Source: Bolinopsis microptera
Lineage: Eukaryota > Ctenophora > Tentaculata > Lobata > Bolinopsidae
Direction: 5' to 3'
NCBI RefSeq assembly: GCF_026151205.1
Contig: NC_087081.1
Coordinates: 5,947,246 to 6,011,245, forward strand
DNA length: 64,000 nt
The translations under genes were made by a program, and so were the position numbers. Each line of letters starts with the position of its first letter. Within the stretch, counting starts at the first letter, position 1. The notes beneath the pieces are model-generated. The model had not been told where the DNA came from. It saw only the letters and a program-made list of their open reading frames with translations, and searched no databases. Below are positions 2,800-52,996 of the stretch, one piece after another.

Positions 2800-5700
2800 T
2801 TAAATCCGTCCACCGAAGTAGAGGATCCTGATTCTTCTTTTGAGGTGAGCGATAGTCCGCAGGTTCGCAGTCCTAACCTGAAGAAGTATAGATATTATGT
2901 TATTGTGTCATGGATATCTGATTCTAGAACAATCTACTGTGGAGAGCATACTATTGTATAAATTTCTGACATTAATAGGGTAAGGCACGTAATTTTGTCA
3001 GGGTACCTAATTTTGTCATTTTGCTCTGAAAAACTGCCTCGGCTCGGAATTTCAGCTTGAAAGAAAAGGTTTGTGTATAAAAAGAAAGCTTAGACTTTGC
3101 TGGAACTGCTCCTACAAAGTTTAAGTTTCTAGCTCTTTTGCATCTGTGTCAAAAATGAAGGCGAAACTGTTAACCCGAAAAATAAATAAGATCCTTAAAG
3201 TTTTCTTAAGGAATTTTCAAAATTTTGATTTATTGCTATTTCAAAAGTAATTGAGCTAGCTTCATGCCATTGCATATTTCAAATATCTTCTACAGCAGAA
3301 GTATACGTACAAATTTTCAAGTCTCTAGCGCAATTATTGTTAGAGTTACAGAGGGTGACAAAATTAGGTTCGATTTTGCCAAAAGTACCTAATTTTGTCA
3401 AAAAAATCGACCTTTCTCAAATTTCTTGTAAATCACAGATTGTGTTGAAAATGGCCTTATACAACTATTCTGAAGTTTTTTTGCCCATAGGATATGTATA
3501 AGGCACTTATAATAGCATTTAAACACTTATAATAGCATATTTTCGCCGAGAAATATACTGTAATTCTGGGTTTTAAAGAGCTATTGGTAAATATAGTTTC
3601 GTGAATCAGTAACCAATATTGATTCATGCTTCATAGAAAGTTTTCAAGATGCCAGTGGTTTCAGGGGCATTTGGGGGCTATTTTCTAAGATTAGATACCC
3701 AAAAAGTGTCATCTTTTCATCAAGCTACAAAACTATGAAAACATCATATCTTTGGGATTTTTGAGGTCAATGTTGGTAAAAAAGCGCTCGAATGATGCAT
3801 CCAGGTAGTCTAAAATACCGAGAAACGGTTACTTTTTGCACAATCTTCAAGTGACAAAATTAGGTTCGGGGTGACAAAATTAAGTAAAGTCACCTAATTT
3901 TGTCATTTTTTCAAAATAATTTTTTTGAACATCTTCAACCCCAGCAATTTCGATCATTTTTGTGTTAGAACTTGCCTAGACTGTCTACTATAACATGGTG
4001 GAGGTTTCATCTAAATCGGAATTTCAGACGAGGTTAAAACCCATGGTTTATATCAGGCAGTCGGAAAATTACCAAAAATGACAAAATTATGTGCTTTACC
4101 CTATGCTCTTTTGTCCAATATAAATAATAAGCGAGTTGAGTTTTTTGGATCACATGACAATCGTAATTTATAACTTTGTAAGGTCAAAACTGGGGCATTT
4201 TGAGTCATACGATTGCAATGTGACCCGTGAAATTTGACCGACTAGACAACTATTTTAAAAGTCATATAATAGTTCAAATCTGAACGAGTCTTATCAAACC
4301 TGAACAAGTGTGATCAAATCTGAACAAATCTGAATAAATCTGAATAAATCTGAATAAATCTGAATAAATCTGAATAAATCTGAACAAATGTAAACGAATC
4401 TGAGCTAATGTTAAACAACAGTCACCTCTCCGTTCATGAAACAATAGATTATCGGGGACCAGACCGTGGAAGTCTTGGCTAGCATAGCTGGAATAGTTGC
4501 AGTGATTCCCTTAGCGAAGAAGTCTGAAAAAGAGGGTGTGGTTTAATTTTTTAATAGACTTTATGCAGGTAAAAAAAGGAGCTTTACAGCAAAATTCGTA
4601 ATAGTCGAGTAAGTTACGATCGATAACAATAAATAAACATACAATTTTCTAGTTATTAGTAAATAAACCAGCTCTGTCGAAGGTGACGAGAAGGTTGACT
4701 ATGGTATAGGGGGTCCACGAGACAAAGAATGATACGATGATAATAGCCACAACGTTGCTGATCTTCTTCTCAGCTGCCTGTGAAGTTGATCAGGAGTTAG
4801 CTCATGAATTTTGATATTTAATTAGATCATAAATCTGGTCCTGAATCAATCACAGATTCATGCTTTAAAGGTTATAAAACATCTACTTTAACCAGTTAAA
4901 GAATCGTTTAAAAGTTGGGGTTATCGTTCAATGGTAGAATGTACGGATGAGAAACTGTTTAAAAGAGAAACCGTTTTCAAAAGATCGGACCAAGAGCAGG
5001 CAAAATTAGTCAACTCATGCTATACGATTAAAAAAACCCAATTCTATATCATTAATTTTGCTTTTAAATTTAAACCATCCTTATTCAAATTTCATTTGCA
5101 AAAACGTCTTTGAAATCCGAAGTTAATAGTTATGTTCATCGTGCGTTCAATCATTATCAATAACAACAACAACAACTTCATGATCTAATCATATCTATAT
5201 TATTACTGAATTAAATGTCTATACTAGACTTACTAGCTGAAGAATAAGACCAGCAAGTATTTTTTAATGATTAGATGCAGCAGCTAGTCACAGACTGCCA
5301 TCATGTGACCAATGCAATGTTTGTTTACACAGTTGCAGAGCTAAATATTAAATATAAGCGGCTTTAAACTTTCAAGCCTAAAGTTTAAAGGGGCTTGATA
5401 GATTCAGCGCTACTTGGCTATCATGACTTTAGACTTTAGAGTCATGATTTGTATGCCTTTAGTTCAACAGAGGTTGGTCAAATAGAATTGTTGGTTCTTT
5501 TCAGATTTCCTACCAAATAGATCTTTTTGTTTCGATCAGTGGAGGTCAGAGACAATTGATTTTGAATCATGTAGATTATAATATAGACTATAATTCGATT
5601 TTAGATGCCAAATACCCAGCAAGCATTAAATCGAGAAGAATGGTTTCAGTGAAATACAAGCGATTGCACTTGAAGACTTTATTAGGTCAGAATATATTAG

Positions 5701-8700
5701 TAATACTAATAACTAAATCCATTTTCATGTTTACAAGTTCACAACTTTTCAAGTTTTCAAGTCTACACGTTTACAAGTTTTCAAGTCTACAAGTTTACAA
5801 GTTTGCAATTTCGCAAGCGTGCACATTACATCACTACACATGCGAAGATGGTTACCCTGATGGTTGATTTTTTATCCTTCGTGCTTTCTTGGCTAAGGAT
5901 TTGGTAGCCATCGCCCTGCTCCAGGATTAGTGATTAAAATATTGCTGTGATTTTCTGCAATGCAACAATGATTGTTTCTGAACGAGACATTTTTTTGAAC
6001 CAAAATTCATGCAGAAGTTAGCGGCTTTCTCAAGTCTTCTACTTAAACTGAAATTATGGAATATCCACTGTTATGTACCTTAATCCGACTCCTGGGTTCA
6101 TCGTTAGGATCCGCACTGTTAGACGTCTTAGAGATCCCTCCTCCTCCTCCAACTGCACTGGTTCCACCCCCACCCTCGGTGGATTCTACATTGGAGGTCT
6201 GCGGTGCTTTGGAGTTATCTCTGCCGCGGGAGGCTTCTTCTGGAAATTTGCGAAAGTCAAAAACCAACAACAGAACGAAGTAGAAATTACTTTTCTACAA
6301 TAGCAGTAAATTCAACTGCTTATCACTCTGATTTTATCGTGGAATTATACTCAGATTCTCCTGTCTCAGACTAGCCTGTCTCTTATCTCATTCTTAACTG
6401 ACTCCTTCTTAGCTATTATCTAACAGGTAACCAGGTAACAGGTCACCAGGTAACCAGCTGTCACATACCATTAGCGTTTATGAGCGATGATTCATTTCCT
6501 GAAGCAGTTCCTATACCCGTTTGACTGGCGTTAGTCTTTGACATTTGGGTTTCCATAGTCATTCCCTCCGGCTGAAATCGAATGATTGTTATCTTTTAAT
6601 TTATATTCTTACTTTTTTACTGTTAACTCCAACAGCCTTACGGTCTCTAAGTAACCTGATATTCGACAGAATTAACTTTAATAGTTGTCCTATGGTCAAA
6701 ACATGAATAATAGTTTGGTACACAATACACATTACAATTTTTAAAAAGAGAAACCGAAGCATGAAAAATAGTAACTCACTGGTATGTTGATTCCAACCTT
6801 ATCGTGTTCTTCGTATACATCTACTGCCTGCTTCACAAAATGTAGAATTCTGTAAAGTAGGGGTGTTAATGTTTTAAAATAATGTCAGTTTCTGGAGAAA
6901 AACAATAACAAATAACAAAAACAAAAAACAGCAACAAAAAACAACAAAAAAACAACAAAAAACAACAACAAAAATAACAACAAAAACAACAACAAAAACA
7001 ACAACAAAAACAACAACAAAAAACCAATGTGTAACTATAAAAAGGTATCATCTTCAAAGGAAACTTTTAGGACGTATCATTTTCAAAAAGTGAAATAGAA
7101 AACAAACCTGTTATAACAGAAAGTAATAATAAGAAGAGGAAAACAAACCTGTTATAACAGAAAGTAATAATAAGAAGAGGAATGAAGTATCCCGTGGCCA
7201 TCATGATCATCACGTACACAACATCGCTTGTGTTATCCGTATTCCAGGATAATGAGTTAGATATTCCAATACCTGAGTTGTGAAACTGTGAAATTATGAA
7301 ACTGTGAAATTGTGAAATTGTTCGATTGTGAAATTGTTCGATTGTGAAATTGTAGGATTAGTTATTACAATGTTTATTTTGAACGAGACCCTCAAATCTC
7401 AACAGGTTACCACTTACAATGCGATTTTACGAACTTAGTGAACTTAGCAAGGGATAGACTAGAATGGAAGAGTATATTTACTATGAGACATGTTGAACGG
7501 AGAAGTCTACACTAGAAAGCATGAATAGGCCAGCACTTCGCTAATAGATATTATTATATATTAATAACCACTTACAATATTGTATATTGTGATCATACAT
7601 TTTGGGGCGAAACCTTATTTATTTGGGTGTCGCAAAGCTAACATTATCTCCTCAGCTCTCAATATATTGCTCTCTCAAAAAGAGTATAATTGTACAGCCC
7701 CCCCCCTCTCCCAGCAACCCTGCATTGTATCAAGGTCCTTTGTTTGGCATATTTTGCGATTGTTATCTTTTAAAGTTTTAATAATGCAACTAACTTACCC
7801 TCCCCTCTCCACGCTGCAATCCCATAAAAGGGCAATGAGGCGTACACTATGTTATAGGTCCACATGATAGTGCAGAACCGGACACTGGTTGCTTCCGTTA
7901 TTCTAAATCTTTGACCTGGCGTCACCCTGAAACGGAAATCGATAAAATTTTGGTATGAGAGATTTTAGAGTTAATCATTGAAATAGAGTGGTGCTAAAAT
8001 TTAAACTTGGGTTATCCTGAAAGTTTTTGTTGAAAAACTTTATCAAAATGTCGTTTCTGGTTTAAGCTGTAACCAGAAATATTTAATATATAGGTAGTTA
8101 ATAAGCGGAATTGTGATTTGTCTTCCTTTTGATGATTGCATAACGAGGCTTTTAAAATTTGACAACAATATTGGACGACGAGGCGTTTTGTAACCAGACA
8201 ATGACCGATTTGTTAACTATTTCCTTTGAATTATTACCAAATGTTCTGCCCTTTAAATGTTTGCTATTTTACCAGCACTTAGTCAACTTTAAGTGGCGTC
8301 ACTTAAAGTTAACTAGGTGCTACTCAAAACTGACAGTTCACCAATATATAGTTATCTCCATTTTAAATTCAAAATGCAGGCTCCTGATTAATTTATTCGA
8401 TATTTAAAGGAACGAATAACCAATAGTAGTATCCCTTTAAAGTGCTCCGGTTATCATTTAAAAATGACTGATCAAAAATTAAAACTTTTAAGAATTCGGA
8501 TGCACAATTTAAACTTGTAACCTGCTAACCGCATCAAATATACCATTTCATGTAAAATTTTAAAGCGTTTATGACATCTGCGAGGGCGTATGTCTCGACA
8601 TTTGCCCTGCAATTTCACTGACTAACCGTATTGCTAATTGAACGCTTTTATGACATCATCAAGGCATGTCTGTAAACTGCAAAGCACCGAGACTTGCTAA

Positions 8701-10137
8701 ATTGCTAGGAAAAGCGAAAATCTGCGAGACTCTAACATGCTCTTGGGTAATGTTCTCTTATTGTTGCTGTATTACAGTCGAGACAATCACCAACTCTTAT
8801 AACGGTACTATTTGTCTCGACCCTTCAGTTGAAATAAGAGGCTTTTAAAATCTGACTAGACAATTCACCCTCTAATCCTTCAACCATATCACATCGATTG
8901 AGCCTTAAGATGATGTCATAAAGGCTATTAGCCCGTGTTTCTCTGGAGAATATACTATTTTGTATTGCAATATTGTAGGAAAATTAATACTGACATTCAA
9001 TGTCAATCCTCGGATTAGTTTCTCGGATAAGATAGAAACCTTGATGAAAAACGTTTCCCCAAACGCAAAAGCCCATAAATTTGGCTATACATAAAATAAA
9101 ATAGCCCGTAATATTCAGAGAAAAAAGCAATAAGTTAACAAATAACAAAAATAATGAAACCTGAGGTATCTCTCGATGGAGACGAAGGCAAGTAAGCTCA
9201 TAGCCATGAGACCACTAGCTGTTACAGTGTAGGCTTCAATCTTACGTCCCATCTCCCCGAACACCCACTTCACTGCAGAGACAAATTATTCAATTATGAG
9301 ACAAATTATTCAATTATGTTTAAAAATCTTCCTCCATAGTGCTGTATTAATAATAATAACACACAAAATTATTCGATTCTGTCTGTAAATTGTCTTATTC
9401 TGTCTTGATAGGACGTCTTAATTATTTTTAAAAACTGGATTGGTAATTGTTTAATACTGTATCAAATGTCACAGTAATGTCACCATGCTGTTTGAATGCA
9501 GTTGTGTTAACAGTTTCTTCAGCCATTCTCAATAACCACTTCGAGATGGCCAGGCCTACTCTCATGCTGTCTATATGTGATGATAACGATATCACGTTGA
9601 ACGTGTAATGTAAATATAGTGTGGATACATGCGAATATATATTCTAAATAACTGAAAAATTCTCAATAACACTGTTAATTCTAACACTACTTACGATTGA
9701 ATCCCGAAATAACCACCATCGGTTCCCCAATACCCGCTATTACTAGATTAGTAACGGCCAGATGGCACAGAATGGTCCTTAACGGTGGTCCTAACGGCTT
9801 TTCTCGGATAAATGTGTAGAGTATTAGGGCATTACCTGCGGAGGTAAAACATTAGACACGAATAAGACATAGCTGAGTCAGAGATAACTGATAAGACAGA
9901 GATAGATATACGCAATTAATAATAGTAATAGTTAATTGGTGATTAATATGAAAATTAACACCACACTTATCGTTATCTAAACTCAAACCCACCGAAAACA
10001 CTGAGGAAGCAATTGAGGGCCAGGAGTCCAGCGAGCATGTAGACAGCTTTAGGGTCCGACTCAAACTCCCCCTCTAAGTCCGAATAATTGGCACCTGCCA
10101 TGGCTTCTACGGGTCCTACATGAGGGCGGAGATTCAT
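2800..10137 (-). CDS. Opsin (retinal-binding G-protein-coupled receptor), 12 exons
   Basis: Light-sensing seven-helix receptor of the plasma membrane. Exons in transcript order: 10137-9993, 9835-9695, 9272-9161, 7926-7799, 7272-7149, 6849-6780, 6571-6469, 6239-6079, 5915-5856, 4777-4669, 4523-4426, 2877-2800. All junctions are GT-AG and the phases (1,1,2,1,2,0,1,0,0,1,0) agree, giving about 442 residues. Visible features: sequon N17; GN of helix 1; LAVTNL in helix 2 (Asp83 position is Asn); E108 at the Glu113 counterion position; ERY 129-131; E175 at the Glu181 position; SWTPY at 368-372; Schiff-base lysine K401 in LAKTSTVWSPIIYCFMN. Odd points: R105 and N181 replace the disulfide cysteines, NPxxY reads SPIIY, and the third cytoplasmic loop is about 134 residues. 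The start follows the Met nearest to helix 1; an open frame continues upstream to 10296. The last exon is short and is the least certain. Confidence 0.93.
2978..4101. mobile_element. Mariner-like MITE (TA target duplication)
   Basis: Near-identical inverted ends of about 22-24 bp (GGGTAAGGCACGTAATTTTG at the left, GGGTAAAGCACATAATTTTG read inward from the right) are flanked by TA on both sides. This is the signature of Tc1/mariner integration. The 1.12-kb interior has no transposase frame and repeats the motif ACCTAATTTTGTCA in both orientations. It sits in the last opsin intron. Confidence 0.85.
4305..4400. repeat. 10-bp tandem repeat (AAATCTGAAT)
   Basis: About eight imperfect copies of AAATCTGAAT or AAATCTGAAC, in the last opsin intron just downstream of exon 11. 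Confidence 0.9.
6900..7023. repeat. CAA/CAAAAA microsatellite in an opsin intron
   Basis: Simple A-rich repeat of ACAACAAAAA type between opsin exons 6 and 5. The minus-strand frame through it is low complexity and is not a gene. Confidence 0.9.
7101..7182. repeat. 41-bp tandem duplication over an opsin splice donor
   Basis: Two copies of a 41-bp unit. The right copy holds the end of opsin exon 5 (FCYNR) and its donor GTTTGT at 7148-7143. The left copy repeats the same exon end and donor inside the intron. Because 41 is not a multiple of 3, use of the second donor would shift the frame after helix 5. Confidence 0.9.
7273..7345. repeat. Short tandem repeat (GTGAAATTGTTCGATT)
   Basis: Imperfect repeats of GTGAAATTGT and TCGATTGTGAAATTG immediately beside the acceptor of opsin exon 5. 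Confidence 0.8.
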
Positions 10138-10670: not shown

Positions 10671-11314
10671 TTGGTAGATCACCGACCAGCTATAAGCCGG
10701 CTACTAACCGGCTACAATTTTTATAGCCGGTTAGTAGCCGCTTACATTTGTTGTTGAGCGACGGCTATTAGCCGGTTATAAGCCTGCTATTAGCCGTTTT
10801 GGTATTAAAAGTGGTTATAAGCCGGCTATAAGCCGGTTATAAGATATTAACTCAACTACATCGTACTGAACGATAGTCAGGAGCCGGCTATAAGAAATTC
10901 AGTGAAAACGGCTATTAGCCGGTTATAAGCCGGCTATTAGCCGTTTAGGTATCGAAAGTGGTTATAAGCCGGCTATAAGCCGGTTATAAGATATTAACTC
11001 AGTTCAGTACGATGAAGTTAAGTTAATATCTTATAGCCGGCTTATAGCCGGCTTATAACCACTTTCGATACCTAAACGGCTAATAGCCGGCTTATAACCG
11101 GCTAATAGCCGTTTTCACTGAATTTCTTATAGCCGATACCTAAACGGCTAATAGCCGGCTTATAACCGGCTAAAAGCCGTCGCTCAACAACAAATGTAAG
11201 CGGCTACTAACCGGCTATAAGCCGGCTTATAGCCGGCTATAAAAATTGTAGCCGGCTATAAGCCGGTTTATAGCCGGCTTATAACCGGCTTATAGCCGGT
11301 CGGTGATCTACCAA
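10671..11314. mobile_element. GCCGGC-palindrome foldback element
   Basis: Inverted ends (TTGGTAGATCACCGACC at the left and its complement at 11298-11314) enclose 644 bp built almost wholly from AGCCGGCTATAAGCCGGCT-type palindromes in both orientations. Larger blocks, such as the one containing AGATATTAACTCA, also recur inverted, so the whole segment can fold on itself. No coding potential. No convincing target duplication was found. Confidence 0.8.
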
Positions 11315-16448: not shown

Positions 16449-16477
<29 letters not shown>

Positions 16478-19400
16478 CTCCTCCTCCTCCTCCTCCTCCT
16501 CCTCCTCCTCCTCCTCCTCCTCTTCCACCTTCTCCTCCTCCTCCTCAGCCATCCTCCTCAGCCATCCTCCTCAGTCCTCCTCAGTCCTCCTCAGTCCTCC
16601 TCCTCTGCAGTCCTCATCATCCTCCTCAGTCCTCCTCCTCCTGGGTCCTCCTCCTCCTCTTCATCCTCCTCCTCTTCCTCCTCAGTCCTCAGTCCTTCTC
16701 CTCAGTCCTCCTCCTCATCCTTTTCGTCAGTACTCCTCCTCCTCAGTCCTCCCCCAGTCCCCCTCCTCCTCCTATTCAGTCCTCCTCCTCCTCCTCCTCA
16801 CTTCTCCTCCTTCTCATTCCTCCTTCTGAGTCCTCCTCATTCCTCCTTCTGAGTCCTCCTCCTGGGTCCTCTTTCTCCTCCTCCTTCTCAGTCCTCCTCC
16901 TCCTCCCTCTCAGTCATCCTCCTCAGTCATCCTCCTCAGCCATCCTCCTCAGCCATCCTCTTCAGCGATCCTCCTCAGTACTCCTCAGTCCTCCTCCTTC
17001 TCAGTCCTCCTCAGTCCTCCTCCTCAGTCCTCCTCAGTCCTCCTCCTCAGTCATCCTTCTCCTCCTCCTCCTCCAGGGGGGATCCTGTTTTTTATCCGTT
17101 TTTTCCGTTCGGAACCCTATATTATCAAAACGGACAAAAAATAGAGCGGACAAAAACAGACAAAAATGGACAAAAAATAACAAAAATGGAAATAATATTT
17201 AGATGCTTCCTCCTCCTCCTCAGTCTTCCTCAGTCATCCTCCTCCTCCTCCTGAGTCCTCCTCCTGGGTCCTCCTCCTGGGACCTCCTCCTCTTGGGTCC
17301 ACCTCCTCTTCATCCTCCTCCTCTTCCTCCTCAGTCCTCAGTTCTCTTCCTCAGCTCAGTCCTCCTTCTTAGTCCTCCTCCTCATCCTTTTCCTCAGTCC
17401 TCCTCCTCAGTCCTGCCCAGTCCCCCTCCTCCTCCTATTCACTCCTCCTCCTCCTCCTCCTCCTCCTCCTCCTCCTCAGTCCTCCTCCTCCTCAGTCCTC
17501 CTCCTTCTCAGTCCTCCTCCTCCTCCTCCTCAGTCCTCCTCCTCCTCCTCAGTCTTCCTCCTCAGTCCTTCTCCTCTTCCTCCTCCTCCTCAGTCTTCCT
17601 CATATTCCTCAGTCCTCCCCCAGTCACCCTCCTCCTCAGTCCTCCCCCCGTCACCCTCCTCCTCATCCCCATCCTCCTCATCAGTCCTCCTTCGCCTTCT
17701 CAGTCCTCCTCTTCAGTCCTCCCCCTCCTTTTCCTGGTTCCTCCTCCTCAGTCCGCATTCTCCTCCTCAGTCCTTCTCAGTCCTTTCCGCAGTCACCCTC
17801 CTCCTCATCCTCCTCATCAGTCCTCCTTCTTCTTAGTCCTCCTCCTCAGTCATCCTTCTCCTCCTCCTCCTCCAGGGGGGATCCTGTTTTTTATCCGTTT
17901 TTTCCGTTCGGAACCCTATATTATCAAAACGGACAAAAAATAGAGCGGACAAAAACAGACAAAAATGGACAAAAAATAACAAAAATGGAAATAATATTTA
18001 GATGCTTCCTCCTCCTCCTCAGTCTTCCTCAGTCATCCTCCTCCTCCTCCTGAGTCCTCCTCCTGGGTCCTCCTCCTGGGACCTCCTCCTCTTGGGTCCA
18101 CCTCCTCTTCATCCTCCTCCTCTTCCTCCTCAGTCCTCAGTTCTCTTCCTCAGCTCAGTCCTCCTTCTTAGTCCTCCTCCTCATCCTTTTCCTCAGTCCT
18201 CCTCCTCAGTCCTGCCCAGTCCCCCTCCTCCTCCTATTCACTCCTCCTCCTCCTCCTCCTCCTCCTCCTCCTCCTCCTCCTCCTCCTCCTCAGTCCTCCT
18301 CCTTCTCAGTCCTCCTCCTCCTCCTCCTCAGTCCTCCTCCTCCTCCTCAGTCTTCCTCCTCAGTCCTTCTCCTCTTCCTCCTCCTCCTCAGTCTTCCTCA
18401 TATTCCTCAGTCCTCCCCCAGTCACCCTCCTCCTCAGTCCTCCCCCAGTCACCCTCCTCCTCATCCCCATCCTCCTCATCAGTCCTCCTTCGCCTTCTCA
18501 GTCCTCCTCTTCAGTCCTCCCCCTCCTTTTCCTGGTTCCTCCTCCTCAGTCCGCATTCTCCTCCTCAGTCCTTCTCAGTCCTTTCCGCAGTCACCCTCCT
18601 CCTCATCCTCCTCATCAGTCCTCCTTCTTCTTAGTCCTCCTCCTCAGTCCTTCTCCTCCTCCTCCTGGGTTCTCCTCCTGGATCCCTCTTCTCCTCCTCA
18701 GTCCTTCTCCTCCTCCTCAGTTATCCTCCTCCTCCTCCTTCTCCTCCTGGGTCCTCCTCCTTCTGCTCACCAGTCCTCCTCCTCAGTCCTCCTCATCCTC
18801 TTCATCCACTTACTTCTCCTCCTCATCAGTCCTCATCAGTCCTCCTCCTCCCAAGTCATCCTCCTCCTCCTGGGGCCTTTTCCTGTGTCCTCCTCCTCCT
18901 GGGTCCTCCTCCTCAGTCCTCCTCCTCTTCCTTCTCCTCAGTCCTTCTCCTCCTCAGTCCTTCTCCTCTTCCTCCTCCTCAGTCTTCCTCCTCCTCAATC
19001 CTTTCCCCAGTCACCCTCCTCCTCATCCTCATCCTCCTCATCAGTCCTCCTTCTCCTTCTCAGTCCTCCTTCTCAGTCCTCCTCCTCCTCTTCTTCCTGG
19101 TTCCTCCTCCTGGGTCCTCCTTCTCCTCCTCAGTCCTCCTCCTCTTCTTCCTCCTCCTGGGTCCTCCTGATCCTCCTCAGTCTTCTTTCTCCTTCTACTC
19201 CTCAGTCCTCCTCCTCCTCAATCCTCCTCTTCCTCCTAAGTCCTCCCCTCCTCAGTCCTCCTAAGTCCTCCCATTCTCAGTCCTCCTCCTCATCAGTCCT
19301 CTTCACCAGTCCTCCTCCTCAGTCCTCCTTATCCTCATCCTTCATCTCCTTCCTTCATCTCCTTTCTCCTCCTCATACACCTCCTCCTCATCAGTCCTCC

Positions 19401-19760
19401 TCCTCACTGCTCACTCCTTCTCCTCCTCCTTCTCCTCCTCCTCCTCCTCGTCCTTAGTCCTCTTTATCAGTCCTCATCAGTCCTCATCAGTCCTCCTCCT
19501 CCCCAGTCCTCCTTTTGGGGCCTTTTCCTGGGTCCTCCTCCTGGGTCCTCCTCCTCTTGGGTCCTCCTCCTCTTGGGTCCTCCTCCTCATCCTTCTCCTT
19601 AGTCCTCCTCCTCCTCAGTCCTCCTCTTGAGTCCTTCTTCTCCTCCTCCTATTCATTCCTCCTCCCCAGTTCTCCTTCTCAGTCTCACTCCTCCTCAGCC
19701 CCCCTCCTCTCCCTCCTCAGTCCCCCTCCTCAGTCCCCCCTCCTCCTTTTCCTCTCTTTC
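16449..19760. repeat. CCT-type low-complexity expansion
   Basis: Degenerate TCC/CAGTCCTCC simple sequence. Pure TCC runs occur near 16448-16520, 17450-17475 and 18240-18290. Open frames of up to 251 codons on the plus strand are poly-Pro, poly-Ser and poly-Leu translations of the repeat. Confidence 0.95.
17076..18673. repeat. 799-bp tandem repeat of element end plus CCT cargo
   Basis: The G-run, GATCCTG, hairpin and CGGACAAAAA module recurs at 17076 and 17875, followed each time by nearly the same CCT text. The period is 799 bp. The left end of the surrounding element (16298) is a more diverged first member of the series. Confidence 0.9.
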
Positions 19761-26464: not shown

Positions 26465-27550
26465 TTAGCTAAGCTTTGATACAAAGCATGCGAACTCAAA
26501 GTCGCTTTCACAACTTTTGTCAACTGAATTGACAGAAGATCTGGTTCCTCTTATACACAGGAGAACCAGCTTCCTGGTAATAAATGATAATTTACATCTT
26601 AAAAAATTGACAACATCTGAATAATTCTGTTGAGTTTTATAACTTATTTTCTCACACAGTAATCTAAAAAATGTTCTCGCTTCTGGCCCGCTGCCACCCG
26701 TGACAGAGTACACCAGTGGACAGAAACTCCCATGTTCGACATTCAATATTCTCTCGTTGTATAACCTCCGCTTCTGAGTCTCAGCTCTCTCGTATATTTT
26801 TTCTGTTGATGATGAGAGATAAGACTCAGAATTGGGATTGAGAAACTTTATGTCGAAATAGGAGTTCTGTCCTGGACGATAGAATCCCCTTGCACGGACG
26901 TCAGGGTGGGCATTGTCTCCTGTTAGTGTGGTACTTGTTGAGAAAGTCTCCCCGTCTAAAGTCTGTAGGTGGGGCTCACATTCTACGTCTTTGCAAACAG
27001 TTGATAGTTGTTTGGCTATGAAATCCCTAACTGAGTTGTGGCGGATGATGATGTAGCCTCCTCTTCGACAGTTTAGAGCATGGTTGATGTCCATTTTGGC
27101 CCCACAAACACAGGATTGAGGTAATCGTGGAAGGTCTTTGTTATATCGAAGAAGTAGACTATCCCTGAATTCCCCTTTGTTCAATGTGAACCCATAAGAC
27201 TTAAGAGGTAGGACAGTCAACCAACTTGAGCTTCCTTTTTCTCTTGCCTGATTAATTGCACGTGTAGATCTATCACTGCTTTCATTGCAGATTAACGTGT
27301 ATTCTAATTCATGCTTTTCTGCCCTCACTTTTAGAATTTCTTTCAGCGACTCGGAATCATGATCTATATCCGTTTCAATTCCGGCCATGGCCTTTACTAA
27401 GGACTTAGTCACTTCCATGGATGTTTTATACTCCTCTGATGCCAACTTTGTATGAAAAGCATTAATATAGAATAATATGTGCTCCTTTATAAATATTAAT
27501 ATCGAATAATATGTACCAGATCCATTTGTTGGCGACCTCTCATTTCTCAA
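26465..27550 (-). CDS. Retroelement-associated protein, C-terminal part (CxC...HxxxC and PD-(D/E)XK-like)
   Basis: A 361-codon open frame resembles the C-terminal part of proteins that I recall as abundant in aquatic invertebrate and fish genomes and usually linked to reverse-transcriptase elements. Visible: KGSSSWLTVLPLKSYGF, then NKGEFRDSLLLRY, then a metal-site-like CVCGAKMDINHALNC, RRGG, RHNSVRDF, and later HPDVRARGF with FDIKFLNP. The last pair looks like the PD and (D/E)xK halves of a restriction-endonuclease-like fold, comparable to the endonuclease end of R2-type LINEs. No reverse transcriptase is seen nearby. The family assignment is from memory, and the first 30 or so residues look non-homologous. 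Confidence 0.6.
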   Translation of the reverse strand: MRNERSPTNGSGTYYSILIFIKEHILFYINAFHTKLASEEYKTSMEVTKSLVKAMAGIETDIDHDSESLKEILKVRAEKHELEYTLICNESSDRSTRAINQAREKGSSSWLTVLPLKSYGFTLNKGEFRDSLLLRYNKDLPRLPQSCVCGAKMDINHALNCRRGGYIIIRHNSVRDFIAKQLSTVCKDVECEPHLQTLDGETFSTSTTLTGDNAHPDVRARGFYRPGQNSYFDIKFLNPNSESYLSSSTEKIYERAETQKRRLYNERILNVEHGSFCPLVYSVTGGSGPEARTFFRLLCEKISYKTQQNYSDVVNFLRCKLSFITRKLVLLCIRGTRSSVNSVDKSCESDFEFACFVSKLS

Positions 27551-29710
27551 GTTAAGCTTTTAGCTATAATAATATTATAGCTAATATGAGATATGATAAT
27601 AATAGGCAAGTTTCCATAAACGATATTTTATGATCGTCGCCGATAATCGCTTATTGAGCGCTTTTTCGGCGCTTTTTTAAAAAAAAACCGTTTACAATCG
27701 CTTTTTTTACGATTATAAACGGTTCAAAAAAAATCGCTTATAATCGACTATAATTGATGTCATAATTCAAAAAAGCGCTTTTTTGAATTTAAAAGCGCTT
27801 ATAAGCGCTTTTAAGCGCTTACTAGCGTCGCTGAGCGATTTGAAAGCGGTTTTCCAGTAGGATTGGCGCCAAAAACGGGTGGATAAGCGGTTGGCCGGAT
27901 AAGCGATTCGTAGGCGCTTTTTTGAACCATTTATAAGCGATTATAAGCGCTTATAATTGGGGTGCAATTTAGCTGTTTATAAAGCGCAAATAAAGCGCTT
28001 ATAAGCGCTTTTAAAATTGAGTCAGGAAAACGCTATATTACATCTTATAACCGCTTATAATCGATTATAAGCGTTTTTTTAGAAATCGCTTATTACGGCT
28101 AATTCATCGCTATTTCACCGCTTTTACCGCTTTTCCTATCATCCATGGCCAGGTGAGCAGGAATTAAAAAGCGCTTATAAGCGCTTTTTCGATGCTGCCC
28201 CTAGCCTGGTCGGAACGGGGTAGTGCCCGGAATTTAAAAGCGCTTATAAGCGATTTCTCAATTCCCCTTAACCTGGTTGGAACTTTCATGTGCTTTTCTG
28301 AGCAACCTGGGGTGCACCGGCAGAGTCAGGATTTAAAAGCGCTCATAGGCGCTTATGATTGCTTTTCTACCGCTTTTCCCATCACCCATGGCCTGGTTGG
28401 CAAGAATTATAAAGCGCTTATAAGCGTTTTTTCAATGCTGCCCCTAACCTGGTCGGAACGGGGGAGTGCCTGGAATTAATATGCGCTTATAAGCGATTTC
28501 TGAATTCCCCTTAACCTGGTCGGAACTGGAAATCAGAGTGCCCGCTTATAAGTTCTTTTCTGTGCAACCTGGGGTGAACCGGCAGAGTCAGGATTTAAAA
28601 GCGGTTATAGGCGCTTATGATCGCTTTTCTACCGCTTTTCCTATCGCCCATGGCCTGGTTGGCAGGAATTAGAAAGCGCTTATAAGCGCTTTTTCAATGC
28701 TGCCACTAACCTGGTCGCAACGGGGGAGTGCCCGGAATTAAAAGGCGCTTATAAGCACTTTTTCAATGCTGCTCCTAACCTGGTCGGAACGGGGGAGTGC
28801 CCGGAATTTAAAAGCGCTTATAGTTATAAGCGATTTCTCAATTCCCTTCAACCTGGTCGGAACTGGAGAGTGCCCACTCGTATGTGCTTTTCTGAGCAAA
28901 CTGGGGTGCACCGGCAGAGTCAGGATTTAAAAGCGCTTATAGGCGCTTATGATCGCTTATCTACCGCTTTTCCCATCACCCATGGACTGGTTGGCAGGAA
29001 TTAGAAAGCGCTTATAAGCGTTTTTTTAATGCTGCCCCTAAGGATTTGAAAAGCGGTTATAAGTTATAAGCGATTACAATCACTTTTTATTGCTGGTTTT
29101 TACCGATTTATCTATCATTTATCAACATGGATTTAAACATAGTTGTTTGACTGGCGATCTAGAAGCCAAGCAAGAAGGCTAAGTGCACGGCGCGGCAAAG
29201 TTCTCCGACAATAATTGTCAGAAATTGTAAAGCGCTTGCAAGCGTTTATTTATATGTTGTTAATGTTGGTGGTTGTCCTGGTGGCGGTCGATGCGCGCTG
29301 CGTCATCAGTCATACACACTTCACATTCAGAACTTGCAAAAGAAAAATATAGTATATGAAATTAAATTATTGCGCTGGGCCACGCTCAGTCTGTCAACGA
29401 GTATGACAGGCCTGTTTATGTCATTCCAAGGAATCTCTAGTCGGGCTGAGCGAATCACGACGTCTGAAAAAAGTGCGGTGCTCATTGAAAGTTAGTGTGT
29501 GCGTGACCAGCATTCACGTACTTGTTCATAATCAATCGTGGACATAAAAACAAGTGCACGCTGAGTACCAATAGGAAAAAAGTAATGTATATATACGCTA
29601 GTAAAGCCGTGCACGTGCAGGCGTGCTGAGATAGCTTGTAAAATTTGGTTATTAGATAGTAAAACTGCAACAAATAAACCGCGCCAGATTGCGCGTTTGA
29701 ATCGCTCCTA

Positions 29711-35079: not shown

Positions 35080-35976
35080 TCATGATGACTTCTTATCACG
35101 GCTACATACCTTCCCGTACCGGATGTAGTGGTCGAGATGAGTCTGTTCCGCCCTCTTCTTCTTCAGGTCAGTGACCAGATGCTTCCTTGTTGCTCGTTCT
35201 TCGCTGGATCTGTCTGGACATATCCATACATCTTTGTGCGTCTCCCTCAGTCTCCCCGTTTTCATCAGAATCTGATGAACCGCTGTTGAGCTTGGGACGG
35301 TGATCTTGACTGGTCGGATAGCCGTACTACCTGGCCTCTTCCAACCGACTCTAGTCGCTTCGAAGTGAGGTTTCTCCCCGATCTCCTCCAAAACTGCGGT
35401 AACTAGCGCTGGAAGCTGTTCTTCCTCCTCTTCTTTCAGCCCAAACACGATCAGGTTCTTGCTCCTGTCCTCCTCTGCAGCCACACTCTTCATCACCTTC
35501 TTCAGGATTTTACTGTTGCAGACCGTACCACTTGCACTGTTCTGTTGAACAGCTGCACTATAGTTCTGAATCCCTGACTCCACCGTTGTTTGGACTGTCT
35601 CCTCAACAGACGTCTTAAGCAACTGTAGTTGTTCGTCCTTCTGCATCAGCAGCTGGCCCTGCAGTCTGATCACCTTTTCTTTGTCTGCTAGTGCTTCCGT
35701 CTTGAAGCACTCGATGATCTCCTTCAAGAGATACATCTGACTACTCTGCCGACGAACAAGGTCCACTGCATCCACAATCCAGCCAGACAGAGTCTGTTTA
35801 TCCTTAGTCTTGATCTTTTCACGACTATCGTAGTCGATTTCACGGTAGTCTATATGCAGGTCTTTTTCTAACTGATCGGACCAGCGTGCAACACAGCCTT
35901 CCACATCTTCCTGTTGATCATAGTTGAACTCCTTAATCAACTCCTGGGATCGGGTCAAAGTTGGGTCATCCCCCAT
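35080..35976 (-). CDS. LINE ORF1 protein (coiled coil plus RRM-like), no ORF2
   Basis: An intact frame of 298 codons from the Met in MGDDPTLTRS; a Met 11 codons further upstream (36009) is in frame but its added residues look like 5' UTR. It resembles ORF1 RNA-binding proteins of CR1/L1-type LINEs in aquatic invertebrates. A coiled-coil segment (KEKVIRLQGQLLMQKDEQLQ) is followed by an RRM-like block opening SKNLIVFGLKE, then RVGWKRPG, RPVKITVPSS, ICPDRSSEERATRKHLV and a basic tail ending YGKVCSRDKKSS. In a full LINE it coats the RNA and ORF2 follows. Here nothing like ORF2 is seen in the next kilobase, so it is an ORF1-only element, a rearranged copy or a host-retained gene. Confidence 0.75.
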   Translation of the reverse strand: MGDDPTLTRSQELIKEFNYDQQEDVEGCVARWSDQLEKDLHIDYREIDYDSREKIKTKDKQTLSGWIVDAVDLVRRQSSQMYLLKEIIECFKTEALADKEKVIRLQGQLLMQKDEQLQLLKTSVEETVQTTVESGIQNYSAAVQQNSASGTVCNSKILKKVMKSVAAEEDRSKNLIVFGLKEEEEEQLPALVTAVLEEIGEKPHFEATRVGWKRPGSTAIRPVKITVPSSTAVHQILMKTGRLRETHKDVWICPDRSSEERATRKHLVTDLKKKRAEQTHLDHYIRYGKVCSRDKKSS

Positions 35977-37080
35977 AGTGTACTTGTATAGTAATGTACA
36001 AGTACACACGCAAAGGTAAACTACGCGGTAACAGCAAACTGAACTTATTGCAAATTTACAAAAGATGTTAAAGTTAGATATATAACGATCGAACTCAAAT
36101 CACAAAAAATAGAAAAAAGCTTTGAACCGACGTGCTTTAGACGACAGACCGCTAAAGGGAGCTACTTTAGTGGATAAGGGAGGCAACTTAACACCAGTTA
36201 GATAGTTAGATACAATTTGTCGATGTCAAAGCGGTGTCTGATTTAATTAAACCATCTGCTTCTTAACGTAAACACGTAATGCTTGTTGATAGGTAAACAT
36301 TGTAGATGTGGATTCTGGTCATATATAGACCAATCAGCTTCCATTATAATTGCCTAATCATACCCCAGAATCACTGTCACGTGCGTGGAAAATATGCCTC
36401 ACCTCAAGAATCCACATATAAATCAGACAAGAAAGATAAACGCATATTGAAAAAGCGCATAAAAACCACAGAATGTCAGTTTCTTACAAAATTAGAAAAC
36501 ATTAGAACTCAATTACAACAATAAAATGCCATTTACTCTAGATGCTATTTACGAAGAGTACATACACTTGGTAGGTACTGTAAGTTACAGCGTCATATTA
36601 TTTTGACATAAATGCAAATATTATGCGGTGCGTATAATAGTTGGCCACATTAACAAAGGCTCAGCCGGAATTCTGCCCCTGAAGTTTTGTTCCTGAGATT
36701 ACAGAAATTGTCAGGAATCCAAAGCTTCTTAGGAATTCATAGCTTCTTAGGAATTCAAAGCTTCTCTACAGAACCCTTAAGTATCTTTAATAAGGTTCTT
36801 AGTATGATTAAACTCGTGATATAATACACACTAAACAGCTGCAAATAGTCACGTCCCTGCAAGACAAGGTCTGGTCGAGCACTCCTACTGTATCGAGTAT
36901 ATATATATACTGTATCGAGTATTAACGCCTTTAATATTCATGGAGAAATTAATATGGCTTGGTAGATAAGTGAGTGATGGTTAGATTCTTCCTCGCGAAA
37001 TGGCGAATAAGAAGTCAGTTCTGTCTTTACCAACTTTGATTTAAGTAAAGGTGCTAGATAAATTATGTGATAAATGAGAC
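35977..37080. other. Sequence around the LINE ORF1 start, no further gene
   Basis: May hold the element's 5' UTR (to about 36200). A plus-strand open frame at 36306-36524 is Lys-rich without family resemblance. Short repeats of CTTCTTAGGAATTCA occur near 36725-36765. Confidence 0.4.
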
Positions 37081-37929: not shown

Positions 37930-39380
37930 GGTCATAAGTCAAACAAGGAATTTAAGCAGTTGAATCCCATTTCAAGCACAGTTTTAGATTGAATCCACAG
38001 TCTGGTGGGGATCTCTTGATACTTTGATAGCGTTGAAGGATCTGCACAGACTTTACCTAATGTTTGTAATACCAAAAAACGCTCGGAGAAAACACTTTCA
38101 TCATGAGCATAACCCAGGGGGCTTACTAAAATTTGGCGTAAGATTGTTTCGGAGTCTGATATCCTGCGACTGCAGAAGGACATTGATTATCTCCATGACT
38201 GGTCACTTTCTAATAAAATGAGATTTCATCCCGACAAATGTAAGGTCCTCACCGTCGCAGGAAGGATATCCGAAACAGTTTCCCTCCTTAGTGTCCTACC
38301 ACTCTTTAACTTTGTATACTCCATGGGAAGAATCACACTTGACTATGTTGATCATGAAAAGGATCTGGGTGTAATTGTGACATCAAATCTCGATTGGAAA
38401 GATCAGTGCTCCAAAGTCCTTTCTAAGGCAAACCAAAAATTAGGCATGGCGAGAAGAAATTGTTATTTTGTCCAAGACGTAAATCGTCGTAGAGTACTGT
38501 ATCTCACTTTAGTGAGGAGCCTATTTGAGCATTGCTCGGTTATATGGAGACCAGTCACAAAATCCCAGATAAGCAAGCTGGAGGGCCTCCAAAAGCGTGC
38601 TATTAAGTGGATTCTTCACGAGGAGTATATGAGTTATCCACCATCCACATACATTCAAAAATGCAGACAGCTGAAGATTATGCCGATTGAAGACCGCTTT
38701 GACTTCTTGGATCTCATCTTCTTCTTTAAAATTGTGAAGCAACATATACCTGTCACTTTACCCTCATATTTGCAACCATTTCAAGGCCACTCAAGGCTCA
38801 GAAATAGTCACATGGACTCTCTATGTTTTGTAAGCTCTATCTCACCTCGAGCAAGCTCCAACGCTTTTGCCAAGAATTTCTTCTATAGGACCCACACTAA
38901 GTGGAATCACATTCCTCTAGATATCCGTGAGATAGAGAGTATCACTGATTTTAAAAGTAAACTTTCCACTTACATGTGGGGGAAAATTATCCCGGTGGAT
39001 TCGGACTCTGAACTTGACTATTCAATAGAAACAAATCCGTAAAATAGTTTATTCAAGATTATCTATTCTTGCTGTCTGCATTTACATATTTCTCAATTTC
39101 ATCTCACAGCACAATATTTTATGAATTGATTGAATGGGTGTGTGATTTTGTTTAAAGTAACTTATTACAATTTTATAAGGGCCCATGCTTGTGCAGGAGC
39201 TGCATTTGCACTCAATATCTGTGTTTTGGTGACCCTCAGGTCCTTTGGTTACATACATTTTGTCCGAGACAATTTCAACTTTGACAATCCATGCTTAGAG
39301 GACAATATTATATTTAACTAATTCATTGTGTAAACTTGTATGTAATTGACTGATTTGAAAGATTTCAATAAAAAAAAAAT
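37930..39380 (+). mobile_element. Truncated CR1-like LINE, 3' half of reverse transcriptase plus tail
   Basis: The largest open part, from about 38150 to the stop at 39042, matches the C-terminal side of a LINE reverse transcriptase: LHDWSLSNKMRFHPDKCKVL, then KDLGVIV, LGMARRNC, LVRSLFEHCSVIWRP and LEGLQKRAIKWIL, in the order typical of the CR1/L2 group. Upstream, to about 37930, are decayed traces (PNVCNT, and DTK as in the YADDTK context) with frameshifts and in-frame stops, so the catalytic core is missing or broken. The copy is 5'-truncated, as LINEs usually are. After the stop there are about 330 bp of 3' region ending in an A-run at 39370-39379. Confidence 0.85.
38150..39042 (+). pseudogene. 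LINE ORF2 fragment (RT thumb and C-terminal region)
   Basis: An open frame with 274 codons after its first Met at 38218, extended in frame to about 38150 by DILRLQKDIDYLHDW. It lacks the endonuclease and the RT palm catalytic motifs, so it cannot be active. Codon usage looks more balanced than the surrounding AT-rich DNA, suggesting moderate age. Confidence 0.8.
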
Positions 39381-47183: not shown

Positions 47184-47631
47184 CAAAATATAGGTTTAGG
47201 GCTTTTCAGATGATTTGGCTCCTCAACAGATACCGACGTACATAACGGTCAATATGTAGTTTAGGTTTACCTGGCCCGTAGGTTACGAATGTGCCCGAGG
47301 AGAAAAAAAAGCAAACTTAAGAAGATTTCTCGGGAACTTAAAAGTTCACCTCAAAATGAAATCTGCACCTATGATTCCCGTGGTAGATGTTACTGTAGTA
47401 GTAATCTTAAATTTAATTGTAAGAGTTACATGGGATGTTTATTAATATATACACAAGCTTCAGACGCAAAATTCATCTGGTAATGACAAGGAAAGCATTT
47501 ATATTGAGACTGATCACTAAATAAATTGATATAAATACCTAAATAATGATATCAAGATGCATGAAAGCCGTGCCACGCTACGTAAGCTGCTAATGTGTCA
47601 GACAAGTTACTAGTGATCACTGAGACTACTT
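47184..47631. other. Intronic sequence before the 40-bp satellite
   Basis: The open frame at 47289-47483 has no family resemblance. Nothing supported. Confidence 0.35.
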
Positions 47632-48893
47632 AAAGTTAGCAAGACATCACAAACTTTTATTATTACTACTTAAAGTTAGCAAGACATCACAAACTTTTAT
47701 TATTACTACTTAAAGTTAGCAAGACATTACAAACTTTTATTATTACTACTTAAAGTTAGCAAGACATCACAAACTTTTATTATTACTACTTAAAGTTAGC
47801 AAGACATCACAAACTTTTAGTATTACTACTTAAAGTTAGCAAGACATTACAAACTTTTATCATTACTACTTAAAGTTAGCAAGACATCACAAACTTTTAT
47901 TATTACTACTTAAAGTTAGCAAGACATTACAAACTTTTAGTATTACTACTTAAAGTTAGCAAGACATCACAAACTTTTAGTATTACTACTTAAAGTTAGC
48001 AAGACATCACAAACTTTTAGTATTACTACTTAAAGTTAGCAAGACATCACAAACTATTAGTATTACTACTTAAAGTTAGCAAGACATCACAAACTTTTAT
48101 TATTACTACTTAAAGTTAACAAGACATCACAAACTATTACTATTACTACTTAAAGTTAGCAAGACATCACAAACTTTTATTATTACTACTTAAAGTTAGC
48201 AAGACATCACAAACTTTTATTATTACTACTTAAAGTTAGCAAGACATCACAAACTTTTATTATTACTACTTAAAGTTAGCAAGACATCACAAACTTTTAT
48301 TATTACTACTTAAAGTTAGCAAGACATCACAAACTTTTATTATTACTACTTAAAGTTAGCAAGACATCACAAACTTTTAGTATTACTACTTAAAGTTAGC
48401 AAGACATTACAAACTTTTATTATTACTACTTAAAGTTAGCAAGACATCACAAACTTTTATTATTACTACTTAAAGTTAGCAAGACATTACAAACTTTTAG
48501 TATTACTACTTAAAGTTAGCAAGACATCACAAACTTTTAGTATTACTACTTAAAGTTAGCAAGACATCACAAACTTTTAGTATTACTACTTAAAGTTAGC
48601 AAGACATCACAAACTATTAGTATTACTACTTAAAGTTAGCAAGACATCACAAACTTTTATTATTACTACTTAAAGTTAACAAGACATCACAAACTATTAC
48701 TATTACTACTTAAAGTTAGCAAGACATCACAAACTTTTATTATTACTACTTAAAGTTAGCAAGACATCACAAACTTTTATTATTACTACTTAAAGTTAGC
48801 AAGACATCACAAACTTTTATTATTACTACTTAAAGTTAGCAAGACATCACAAACTTTTATTATTACTACTTAAAGTTAGCAAGACATCACACT
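47632..48893. repeat. 40-bp satellite, about 31 copies
   Basis: Unit ACTTAAAGTTAGCAAGACAT plus CACAAACTTTTATTATTACT, highly homogeneous. Variant units (for example the one with GTTAACAAG at 48113 and 48673) recur at a spacing of 560 bp, i.e. 14 units, showing a higher-order duplication. Confidence 0.95.
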
Positions 48894-51057: not shown

Positions 51058-52996
51058 CGTTAGCAACGTTAGTGGGGCCAGGAAGAGCAACGTTAGTGGG
51101 GCCAGGAAGAGCAACGTTAGTGGGGCCAGGAAGAGCAACGTTAGGGCTTTAGGGGGGCCAGGAAGAGCAACGTTAGTGGGGCCAGGAAGAGCAACGTTAG
51201 GGGGGCCAGGAAGAGCAACGTTAGGGCTTTAGGGGGGCCAGGAAGAGCAACGTTAGTGGGGCCTGGAAGAGCAACGTTAGGGCTTTAGGGGGCCAGGAAG
51301 AGCAACGTTAGTGGGGCCAGGAAGAGCAACGTTAGTGGGGCCAGGAAGAGCAACGTTAGGGCTTTAGGGGGGCCAGGAAGAGCAACGTTAGTGGGGCCAG
51401 GAAGAGCAACGTTAGTGGGGCCAGGAAGAGCAACGTTAGGGGGCCAGGAAGAGCAACGTTAGGGCTTTAGGGGGCCAGGAAGAGCAACGTTAGTGGGGCC
51501 AGGAAGAGCAACGTTAGTGGGGCCAGGAAGAGCAACGTTAGGGCTTTAGGGGGGCCAGGAAGAGCAACGTTAGTGGGGCCAGGAAGAGCAACGTTAGGGG
51601 GGCCAGGAAGAGCAACGTTAGGGCTTTAGGGGGGCCAGGAAGAGCAACGTTAGTGGGGCCAGGAAGAGCAACGTTAGGGCTTTAGGGGGCCAGGAAGAGC
51701 AACGTTAGTGGGGCCAGGAAGAGCAACGTTAGTGGGGCCAGGAAGAGCAACGTTAGGGCTTTAGGGGGGCCAGGAAGAGCAACGTTAGTGGGGCCAGGAA
51801 GAGCAACGTTAGTGGGGCCAGGAAGAGCAACGTTAGGGGGCCAGGAAGAGCAACGTTAGGGCTTTAGGGGGCCAGGAAGAGCAACGTTAGTGGGGCCAGG
51901 AAGAGCAACGTTAGTGGGGCCAGGAAGAGCAACGTTAGGGCTTTAGGGGGGCCAGGAAGAGCAACGTTAGTGGGGCCAGGAAGAGCAACGTTAGGGGGGA
52001 CCAGGAAGAGCAACGTTAGGGGGGACCAGGAAGAGCAACGTTAGTGGGGCCAGGAAGAGCAACGTTAGTGGGGCCAGGAAGAGCAACGTTAGTGGGGCCA
52101 GGAAGAGCAACGTTAGGGGGGACCAGGAAGAGCAACGTTAGTGGGGCCAGGAAGAGCAACGTTAGGGCTTTAGGGGGGCCAGGAAGAGCAACGTTAGTGG
52201 GGCCAGGAAGAGCAACGTTAGGGGGGCCAGGAAGAGCAACGTTAGGGCTTTAGGGGGGCCAGGAAGAGCAACGTTAGGGGGGACCAAGAAGAGCAACGTT
52301 AGTGGGGCCAGGAAGAGCAACGTTAGGGCTTTAGGGGGGCCAGGAAGAGCAACGTTAGTGGGGCCAGGTTGAGCAACGTTAGGGGGGCCAGGAAGAGCAA
52401 CGTTAGGGCTTTAGGGGGGCCAGGAAGAGCAACGTTAGTGGGGCCAGGAAGAGCAACGTTAGGGGGCCAGGAAGAGCAACGTTAGGGCTTTAGGGGGGCC
52501 AGGAAGAGCAACGTTAGTGGGGCCAGGAAGAGCAACGTTAGGGCTTTAGGGGGCCAGGAAGAGCAACGTTAGTGGGGCCAGGAAGAGCAACGTTAGTTGG
52601 GCCAGGAAGAGCAACGTTAGTGGGGCCAGGAAGAGCAACGTTAGGGGGCCAGGAAGAGCAACGTTAGGGCTTTAGGGGGCCAGGAAGAGCAACGTTAGGG
52701 GGGACCAGGAAGAGCAACGTTAGTGGGGCCAGGAAGAGCAACGTTAGGGCTTTAGGGGGGCCAGGAAGAGCAACGTTAGTGGGGCCAGGAAGAGCAACGT
52801 TAGGGGGGACCAGGAAGAGCAACGTTAGTGGGGCCAGGAAGAGCAACGTTAGGGGGGACCAGGAAGAGCAACGTTAGTGGGGCCAGGAAGAGCAACGTTA
52901 GGGCTTTAGGGGGCCAGGAAGAGCAACGTTAGTGGGGCCAGGAAGAGCAACGTTAGTGGGGCCAGGAAGAGCAACGTTAGGGGGGCCAGGAAGAGT
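51058..52996. repeat. 24-bp minisatellite (CCAGGAAGAGCAACGTTAGT), about 1.94 kb
   Basis: Roughly 78 copies of a unit CCAGGAAGAGCAACGTTAGT plus GGGG. Some units carry an extra GGCTTTAGG, and these lengthened units recur in patterns such as long-short-short, giving a higher-order structure. Open frames on both strands (Gly/Pro/Ala-rich and Leu/Pro-rich) are repeat translations. Confidence 0.95.

What the first reader, a model, noticed from the sequence alone, without database searches (positions are those of the whole stretch)
7149..9272. Opsin that has lost both halves of the conserved extracellular disulfide
Aligning without gaps, GEMGRKIEAY (helix 3) puts R105 where bovine rhodopsin has Cys110, and GEGIGISNSLSW (second extracellular loop) puts N181 where it has Cys187. 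The disulfide joining these is one of the most conserved features of opsins and class A receptors. Loss of both partners in one protein, while the Schiff-base lysine K401, E108 (113 position), E175 (181 position) and ERY remain, suggests coordinated loss under continued selection instead of decay: all 12 exons are open and correctly spliced.
Basis: partly seen in the sequence, partly recalled or inferred. Interest (0 to 1): 0.82.

Follow-up and report, generated by a model that had tools for sequence, protein, structure and literature searches.

The report
Comb-jelly opsin lacking the usual disulfide
This is a comb jelly's light-sensor gene whose protein lacks a chemical clamp found in most related receptors; the gap is real, but it was reported in 2012 for a close relative, where the matching protein still works as a light pigment.

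Summary
Observation confirmed. Arg105 stands at bovine Cys110 and Asn181 at Cys187. This hardly depends on the alignment: the modelled protein has five Cys, all in stretches that align with helices. Lys381 (Schiff-base site), Glu108, Glu175 and ERY are kept.

The genome fits Bolinopsis microptera, a comb jelly. The phenomenon is published: Schnitzler et al. 2012 (PMC3570280) state that the Cys110-Cys187 disulfide is absent from Mnemiopsis opsins 1-3. MleiOpsin2, also 11 exons with Glu113, Glu181 and ERY, binds 11-cis-retinal and absorbs at 501 nm. This gene is most likely its ortholog, so 'retained function' is plausible, and a novel loss is not.

Added here: the loss is not a habit of this genome. 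In a convenience sample, 40 of 42 receptor ORFs keep the helix-3 Cys and 24 of 25 keep a loop-2 Cys. The opsin also has Asn at 2.50 and Ser at 7.49, where controls are almost invariant. Orthology, selection and expression were not tested directly. Verdict: already known; low interest.

The parts
9993..10137 (-). exon 1: N-terminus and start of helix 1
   Evidence: open frame from first in-frame ATG, GT donor, phase fits exon 2; aligned to rhodopsin from residue 27
9695..9835 (-). exon 2: helices 1-2 (LAVTNLV: Asn at 2.50)
   Evidence: AG/GT borders; rhodopsin alignment; found by rhodopsin alone, E 0.0022
9161..9272 (-). exon 3: ECL1 and helix 3; Arg105 at Cys110 position, Glu108 at 113, ERY at 129-131
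   Evidence: ungapped to bovine rhodopsin; AG/GT borders; found by rhodopsin alone, E 0.0022
7799..7926 (-). exon 4: helix 4 to start of ECL2; Glu175 (181 position) is its last full codon
   Evidence: AG/GT borders; rhodopsin alignment of the model; not significant by rhodopsin alone, E 1.5
7149..7272 (-). exon 5: ECL2 and helix 5; Asn181 at Cys187 position, Ile179 at Cys185
   Evidence: AG/GT borders; rhodopsin alignment; found by rhodopsin alone, E 4e-5
6780..6849 (-). exon 6: cytoplasmic loop 3
   Evidence: AG/GT borders, phase fits; rhodopsin alignment only to residue 230
6469..6571 (-). exon 7: cytoplasmic loop 3
   Evidence: AG/GT borders, phase fits; two other acceptors also fit; no homology support
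6079..6239 (-). exon 8: cytoplasmic loop 3, Gly-rich
   Evidence: AG/GT borders, phase fits; acceptor uncertain by 3 bases; no homology support
4669..4777 (-). exon 9: helix 6
   Evidence: AG/GT borders; rhodopsin alignment; found by rhodopsin alone, E 1e-5
4426..4523 (-). exon 10: helix 7; Lys381 (Schiff-base position 296), SPIIY in place of NPxxY
   Evidence: AG/GT borders; rhodopsin alignment; found by rhodopsin alone, E 7.9e-6
2800..2877 (-). exon 11: helix 8 and short tail, stop codon included (tentative)
   Evidence: pyrimidine-rich acceptor, phase 0, reads NGEVRTANLRTIAHLKRR; chosen by eye among several in-phase candidates; no homology support

Best explanation
This is the Bolinopsis ortholog of ctenophore opsin2 (MleiOpsin2): a working retinal-binding class A receptor. 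Retinal is held on Lys381, the protonated Schiff base is balanced by Glu108 and/or Glu175, and light switches the ERY site. Cys110 and Cys187 were replaced in the ctenophore opsin lineage, so loop 2 is held over the pocket without a disulfide, presumably by non-covalent contacts that may include Arg105. Shown here: the gene structure in outline, the residues, the absence of a Cys outside the helices, and that most other sampled receptors of the genome keep the Cys. Shown in print for Mnemiopsis: the absence of the disulfide and a 501 nm pigment. Inferred: orthology, function in this species, and what replaces the disulfide.
For: Pfam 7tm_1 E 7.4e-36 (398-residue model). Of 372 distinct PDB sequences matched (60 shown), the 29 highest-ranked are all opsins or opsin chimeras. 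Residues as listed. The genome is 264.65 Mb, 13 contigs hold 97.5%, the largest of these is 26.2 Mb and N50 is 20.8 Mb, matching the table for B. microptera (265 Mb, 13, 26.2 Mb, 20.8 Mb). MleiOpsin2 has 11 exons, Glu113, Glu181, ERY and no Cys110/Cys187, while MleiOpsin1 has EQY and 8 exons and MleiOpsin3 has RRA and 7 exons. MleiOpsin2 forms a 501 nm pigment. Opsin1 and opsin2 are reported as conserved across ctenophores. Control receptors: 40 of 42 keep Cys3.25, or 34 of 36 groups after joining ORFs 90% identical.
Against: I could align no ctenophore opsin sequence, so orthology rests on matching characters and exon count, and my count of 11 includes a tentative last exon. Length differs (422 against 400 aa). 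I did not recognise the second expected opsin (opsin1) in this genome. No expression data. Asn at 2.50, Ser at 7.49 and an exact 41-bp duplication at the exon 5 donor leave some room for relaxed constraint. Some donors are far from consensus (GTTTCA after exon 3, GTTTAT after exon 9).
Confidence: 0.9

Rival explanations
1. A decaying opsin: loss of the disulfide and of other core residues marks a gene on its way to becoming a pseudogene in this species.
For: Asn at 2.50 and Ser at 7.49 where 33 of 33 and 32 of 33 control receptors keep Asp and Asn; a 41-bp tandem duplication across the exon 5 donor.
Against: Eleven exons can be joined with no stop or frameshift and consistent phases (borders were chosen to fit); Lys, both Glu and ERY kept; the Mnemiopsis protein lacking the same cysteines forms a pigment.
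Confidence: 0.05
2. The gene model is wrong and an unseen exon or splice form supplies one or both cysteines.
Against: Helix 3 and loop 2 are read through cleanly joined exons aligned to rhodopsin; no other helix-3 or loop-2 fragment better than E 0.64 among 349 six-frame fragments.
Confidence: 0.02
3. A non-opsin receptor that gained a helix 7 lysine by convergence, as suggested for Mnemiopsis opsin3.
For: A precedent in the same phylum.
Against: Best solved matches are rhodopsins, with 32% identity to the bovine one over the 7TM core, both Glu counterion sites and TIPA..AKTS in helix 7.
Confidence: 0.03

Closest known systems
MleiOpsin2 of Mnemiopsis leidyi (Schnitzler et al. 2012, PMC3570280)
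   Same: No Cys110/Cys187, Glu113 and Glu181, ERY, Lys296, 11 exons, ctenophore.
   Different: 400 aa against 422 aa in this model. The words Asp83, Asn302 and NPxxY do not occur in the main text, so residues at 2.50 and 7.49 could not be compared.
MleiOpsin1 and MleiOpsin3
   Same: Also lack the Cys110-Cys187 disulfide and keep Lys296.
   Different: EQY and RRA in place of ERY; 8 and 7 exons; opsin3 lacks Glu113 and is not counted as a true opsin by the Beroe genome paper.
Bovine rhodopsin (PDB 1f88)
   Same: 32% identity over the 7TM core, Lys296, Glu113, Glu181, ERY.
   Different: Has the disulfide, Asp83 and NPxxY; this protein has Arg and Asn at the two cysteines, Asn at 83 and SPxxY.

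Membership tests
Animal (type 2) opsin | Class A 7TM fold | tested here: met
   Pfam 7tm_1 E 7.4e-36, residues 49-391
Animal (type 2) opsin | Retinal-binding Lys in helix 7 | tested here: met
   Lys381 aligned to Lys296; 0 of 28 control receptor ORFs with a residue there have Lys
Animal (type 2) opsin | Closest to opsins among solved receptors | tested here: met
   The 29 highest-ranked distinct PDB sequences of the 60 shown are opsins or opsin chimeras
Animal (type 2) opsin | Binds retinal and responds to light | not testable with these tools
   Shown in print for MleiOpsin2 only
Ctenophore opsin2 (MleiOpsin2 group) | Glu113, Glu181, ERY, Lys296, no Cys110/Cys187 | tested here: met
   Window model against the published description
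Ctenophore opsin2 (MleiOpsin2 group) | 11 exons as in MleiOpsin2 | tested here: inconclusive
Ctenophore opsin2 (MleiOpsin2 group) | Groups with opsin2 sequences in a tree | not testable with these tools
   I reached no ctenophore opsin sequence
Usual class A traits (typical, not defining for opsins) | Cys3.25-ECL2 disulfide | tested here: not met
   No Cys at either site, and none outside helix-aligned stretches
Usual class A traits (typical, not defining for opsins) | Asp2.50 and Asn7.49 (NPxxY) | tested here: not met
   Asn and Ser

The most novel reading that the evidence does not exclude
The ctenophore opsin2 lineage rebuilt its extracellular cap and its inner polar network together: Arg3.25, one helical turn from the Glu113 counterion, replaces the disulfide with an ionic tie to loop 2, while Asn2.50 and Ser7.49 replace the Asp-Asn pair. 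That would give an opsin with a disulfide-free, redox-insensitive fold suited to photocytes.
Probability: 0.1. Interest if true: 0.5.

Novelty: already known. Interest (0 to 1): 0.2.

Why it matters
Little is new about the absence itself: it is in print for a close relative, with a working pigment. It is still a useful natural example that a visual pigment can form without the class A disulfide. The paired change at 2.50 and 7.49, and the helix-3 Cys kept by most sampled receptors of this genome, make ctenophore opsins a good system for asking what the disulfide is needed for.

Tried and rejected
Decay: rejected as main reading because the exons can be joined in frame and key residues remain. 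A hidden Cys-bearing exon: nothing better than E 0.64 among 349 six-frame fragments beyond the modelled exons and the duplicated end of exon 5. That profile contains this opsin itself, so its scores for the modelled exons are not independent support; with bovine rhodopsin alone, exons 2, 3, 5, 9 and 10 are found at E 0.0022 or better and exon 4 only at E 1.5. A genome-wide habit of losing the Cys: rejected, 40 of 42 ORFs keep it.

How that control was made: 103 ORFs of at least 150 aa from loci L001-L083, 89 after removing contained copies. They were aligned at E 1e-3 to a two-sequence profile (window opsin and bovine rhodopsin), giving 53 control ORFs, of which 11 had no residue at 3.25 and were not counted. 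The 42 counted fall into 36 groups at 90% identity, 34 with Cys. The loci came from searches with 7tm_1, this opsin and rhodopsin, so it is a convenience sample. The ECL2 count asks for any Cys in the stretch between helix-4 and helix-5 landmarks in the 25 control ORFs that have both landmarks; 24 have one and L047_0 does not. The script's printed totals of 25 and 2 include bovine rhodopsin and this opsin.

Opsin1 paralog: five protein searches of the genome gave no hit that I recognised as a second multi-exon opsin; I did not read every hit, and one search scored 140 of 233 candidates. Four stretches fetched as candidates, read by eye: two receptors with Cys3.25 and no helix 7 Lys (L086, L087), one receptor fragment with Cys3.25 (L084) and one apparent chance match (L085). 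This does not show absence.

Papers: of PMC3570280, sections 13, 17, 19, 21, the outline and passages; of PMC11184263, PMC4159004, PMC11797021, PMC10232365, PMC5756024, PMC5648526 and PMC9257189, passages only. The rhodopsin Cys110/Cys187 mutant papers (Karnik 1988, Davidson 1994, Hwa 1999) were seen only as reference titles; Davidson 1994 is not held. Whether the changes at 2.50 and 7.49 are in print was checked only in PMC3570280's main text.

Full report
What is there. On the minus strand of the window, 10137 down to 2800, lies an opsin gene. I joined exons by requiring GT and AG borders and matching phases, which gives 11 exons and 422 residues without a stop. Canonical borders are therefore built in; some donors are weak (GTTTCA after exon 3, GTTTAT after exon 9). 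Homology support comes from the rhodopsin alignment of the 398-residue version, residues 27-230 and 327-396, so exons 1-5, part of 6, 9 and 10. Bovine rhodopsin alone finds exons 2, 3, 5, 9 and 10 at E 0.0022 or better, and exon 4 only at E 1.5. Exons 7 and 8 (loop 3) rest on borders and phase; exon 11 (helix 8 and tail) is tentative. The finding's coordinates are exactly exons 3-5.

The claim. phmmer against solved structures gives bovine rhodopsin E 6.2e-29, and the 29 best of the 60 sequences shown (372 matched) are opsins or opsin chimeras. From VFG through ERY there is no gap: Arg105 stands at Cys110 and Glu108 at Glu113. In loop 2, Glu175 stands at Glu181, Ile179 at Cys185 and Asn181 at Cys187. 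The strongest form hardly needs an alignment: the five cysteines (43, 72, 151, 214, 392) lie in stretches aligned with helices 1, 2, 4, 5 and 7, so the modelled chain offers no extracellular pair. I could not find the extra exon in the one intron scanned; the difference lies between residue 181 and the Lys, away from the claim.

Which organism. The assembly has 264.65 Mb. Thirteen contigs hold 97.5%, the largest is 26,206,493 bases and N50 is 20,825,282. A published table gives Bolinopsis microptera 265 Mb, 13 chromosomes, largest 26.2 Mb, N50 20.8 Mb, and Mnemiopsis 248 Mb and 20.0 Mb (PMC11797021, passages). So this is very probably B. microptera, a lobate comb jelly.

Already in print. Schnitzler et al. 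2012 (PMC3570280, section 13) write that the disulfide normally at Cys110 and Cys187 is not present in MleiOpsins 1 to 3, and raise both possibilities: proteins that fold without it, or disrupted function. The same section gives MleiOpsin2 11 exons, Glu at 113 and 181, and ERY, the set found here. MleiOpsin1 has EQY and 8 exons; MleiOpsin3 has RRA and 7. Section 19 reports that purified MleiOpsin2 with 11-cis-retinal absorbs at 501 nm and that light shifts it to about 380 nm. Section 21 reports expression in photocytes and the apical organ. The Beroe genome paper reports opsin1 and opsin2 as conserved across ctenophores and does not count opsin3 as a true opsin (passages).

What I can add. First, most sampled receptors of this genome keep the cysteines. 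Of 53 control ORFs aligned, 42 have a residue at 3.25 and 40 are Cys (34 of 36 groups at 90% identity). Of 25 with loop 2 readable between landmarks, 24 have a Cys there. The two exceptions at 3.25 both come from one locus (L047), and the one of them whose loop 2 could be read lacks that Cys too, in line with the two residues being kept or lost as a pair. So the absence in the opsin looks derived and specific. The sample is one of convenience. Second, this opsin also has Asn at 2.50 and Ser at 7.49; controls have Asp in 33 of 33 and Asn in 32 of 33. The words 'Asp83', 'NPxxY' and 'Asn302' do not occur in the main text of the 2012 paper; I searched no further for this. Third, an exact 41-bp tandem duplication covers the end of exon 5 and its donor. 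The second donor would shift the frame into a stop, so of the two only the donor at 7148 serves.

Mechanism. Most likely a light receptor as in MleiOpsin2: retinal on Lys381, counterion Glu108 and/or Glu175, G-protein switch at ERY. How loop 2 is held without the disulfide is unknown; an ionic contact of Arg105 is my guess and was not tested. That bovine rhodopsin mutated at these cysteines is impaired is recalled; I saw only the titles of those papers.

Limits. I had no ctenophore opsin sequence, no transcript data and no second genome, so orthology, selection and expression in this species are untested. I did not recognise opsin1 here in five protein searches, which is weak evidence because short exons are hard to find that way and not every hit was read.

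Verdict. True observation, apparently sound gene, known phenomenon. Interest 0.2.

Noticed in passing
7098-7179: Exact 41-bp tandem duplication across the end of opsin exon 5 and its splice donor; use of the second donor would shift the frame into a stop.
   Followed up: partly
exons 2 and 10 (9695-9835, 4426-4523): The opsin has Asn at 2.50 and Ser at 7.49, positions that are Asp in 33 of 33 and Asn in 32 of 33 control receptor ORFs of the genome.
   Followed up: partly
L047 (G000:C3:11013886-11017248): Two neighbouring receptor ORFs, both without the helix-3 Cys (Met and Ala); the longer one also has no Cys in loop 2.
   Followed up: no
10909-11299: Short palindromic repeats of the type CGGCTATAAGCCGG just upstream of the opsin gene; units with GCGCTTATAAGCGC recur in arrays between 27789 and 33487.
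   Followed up: no
47625-48891, 51062-52995, 55298-57385, 63007-64000: Large tandem arrays with periods of 40, 24, 301 and 53 bases.
   Followed up: no
16452-19747: Three pyrimidine-rich TCC-type repeat arrays on one strand (16452-17074, 17208-17873, 18007-19747), open in several frames.
   Followed up: no
26465-27559 (-), 35080-36099 (-), 38113-39042 (+): Long ORFs that look like retroelement pieces by eye; none matched a Pfam family at E 0.01.
   Followed up: partly
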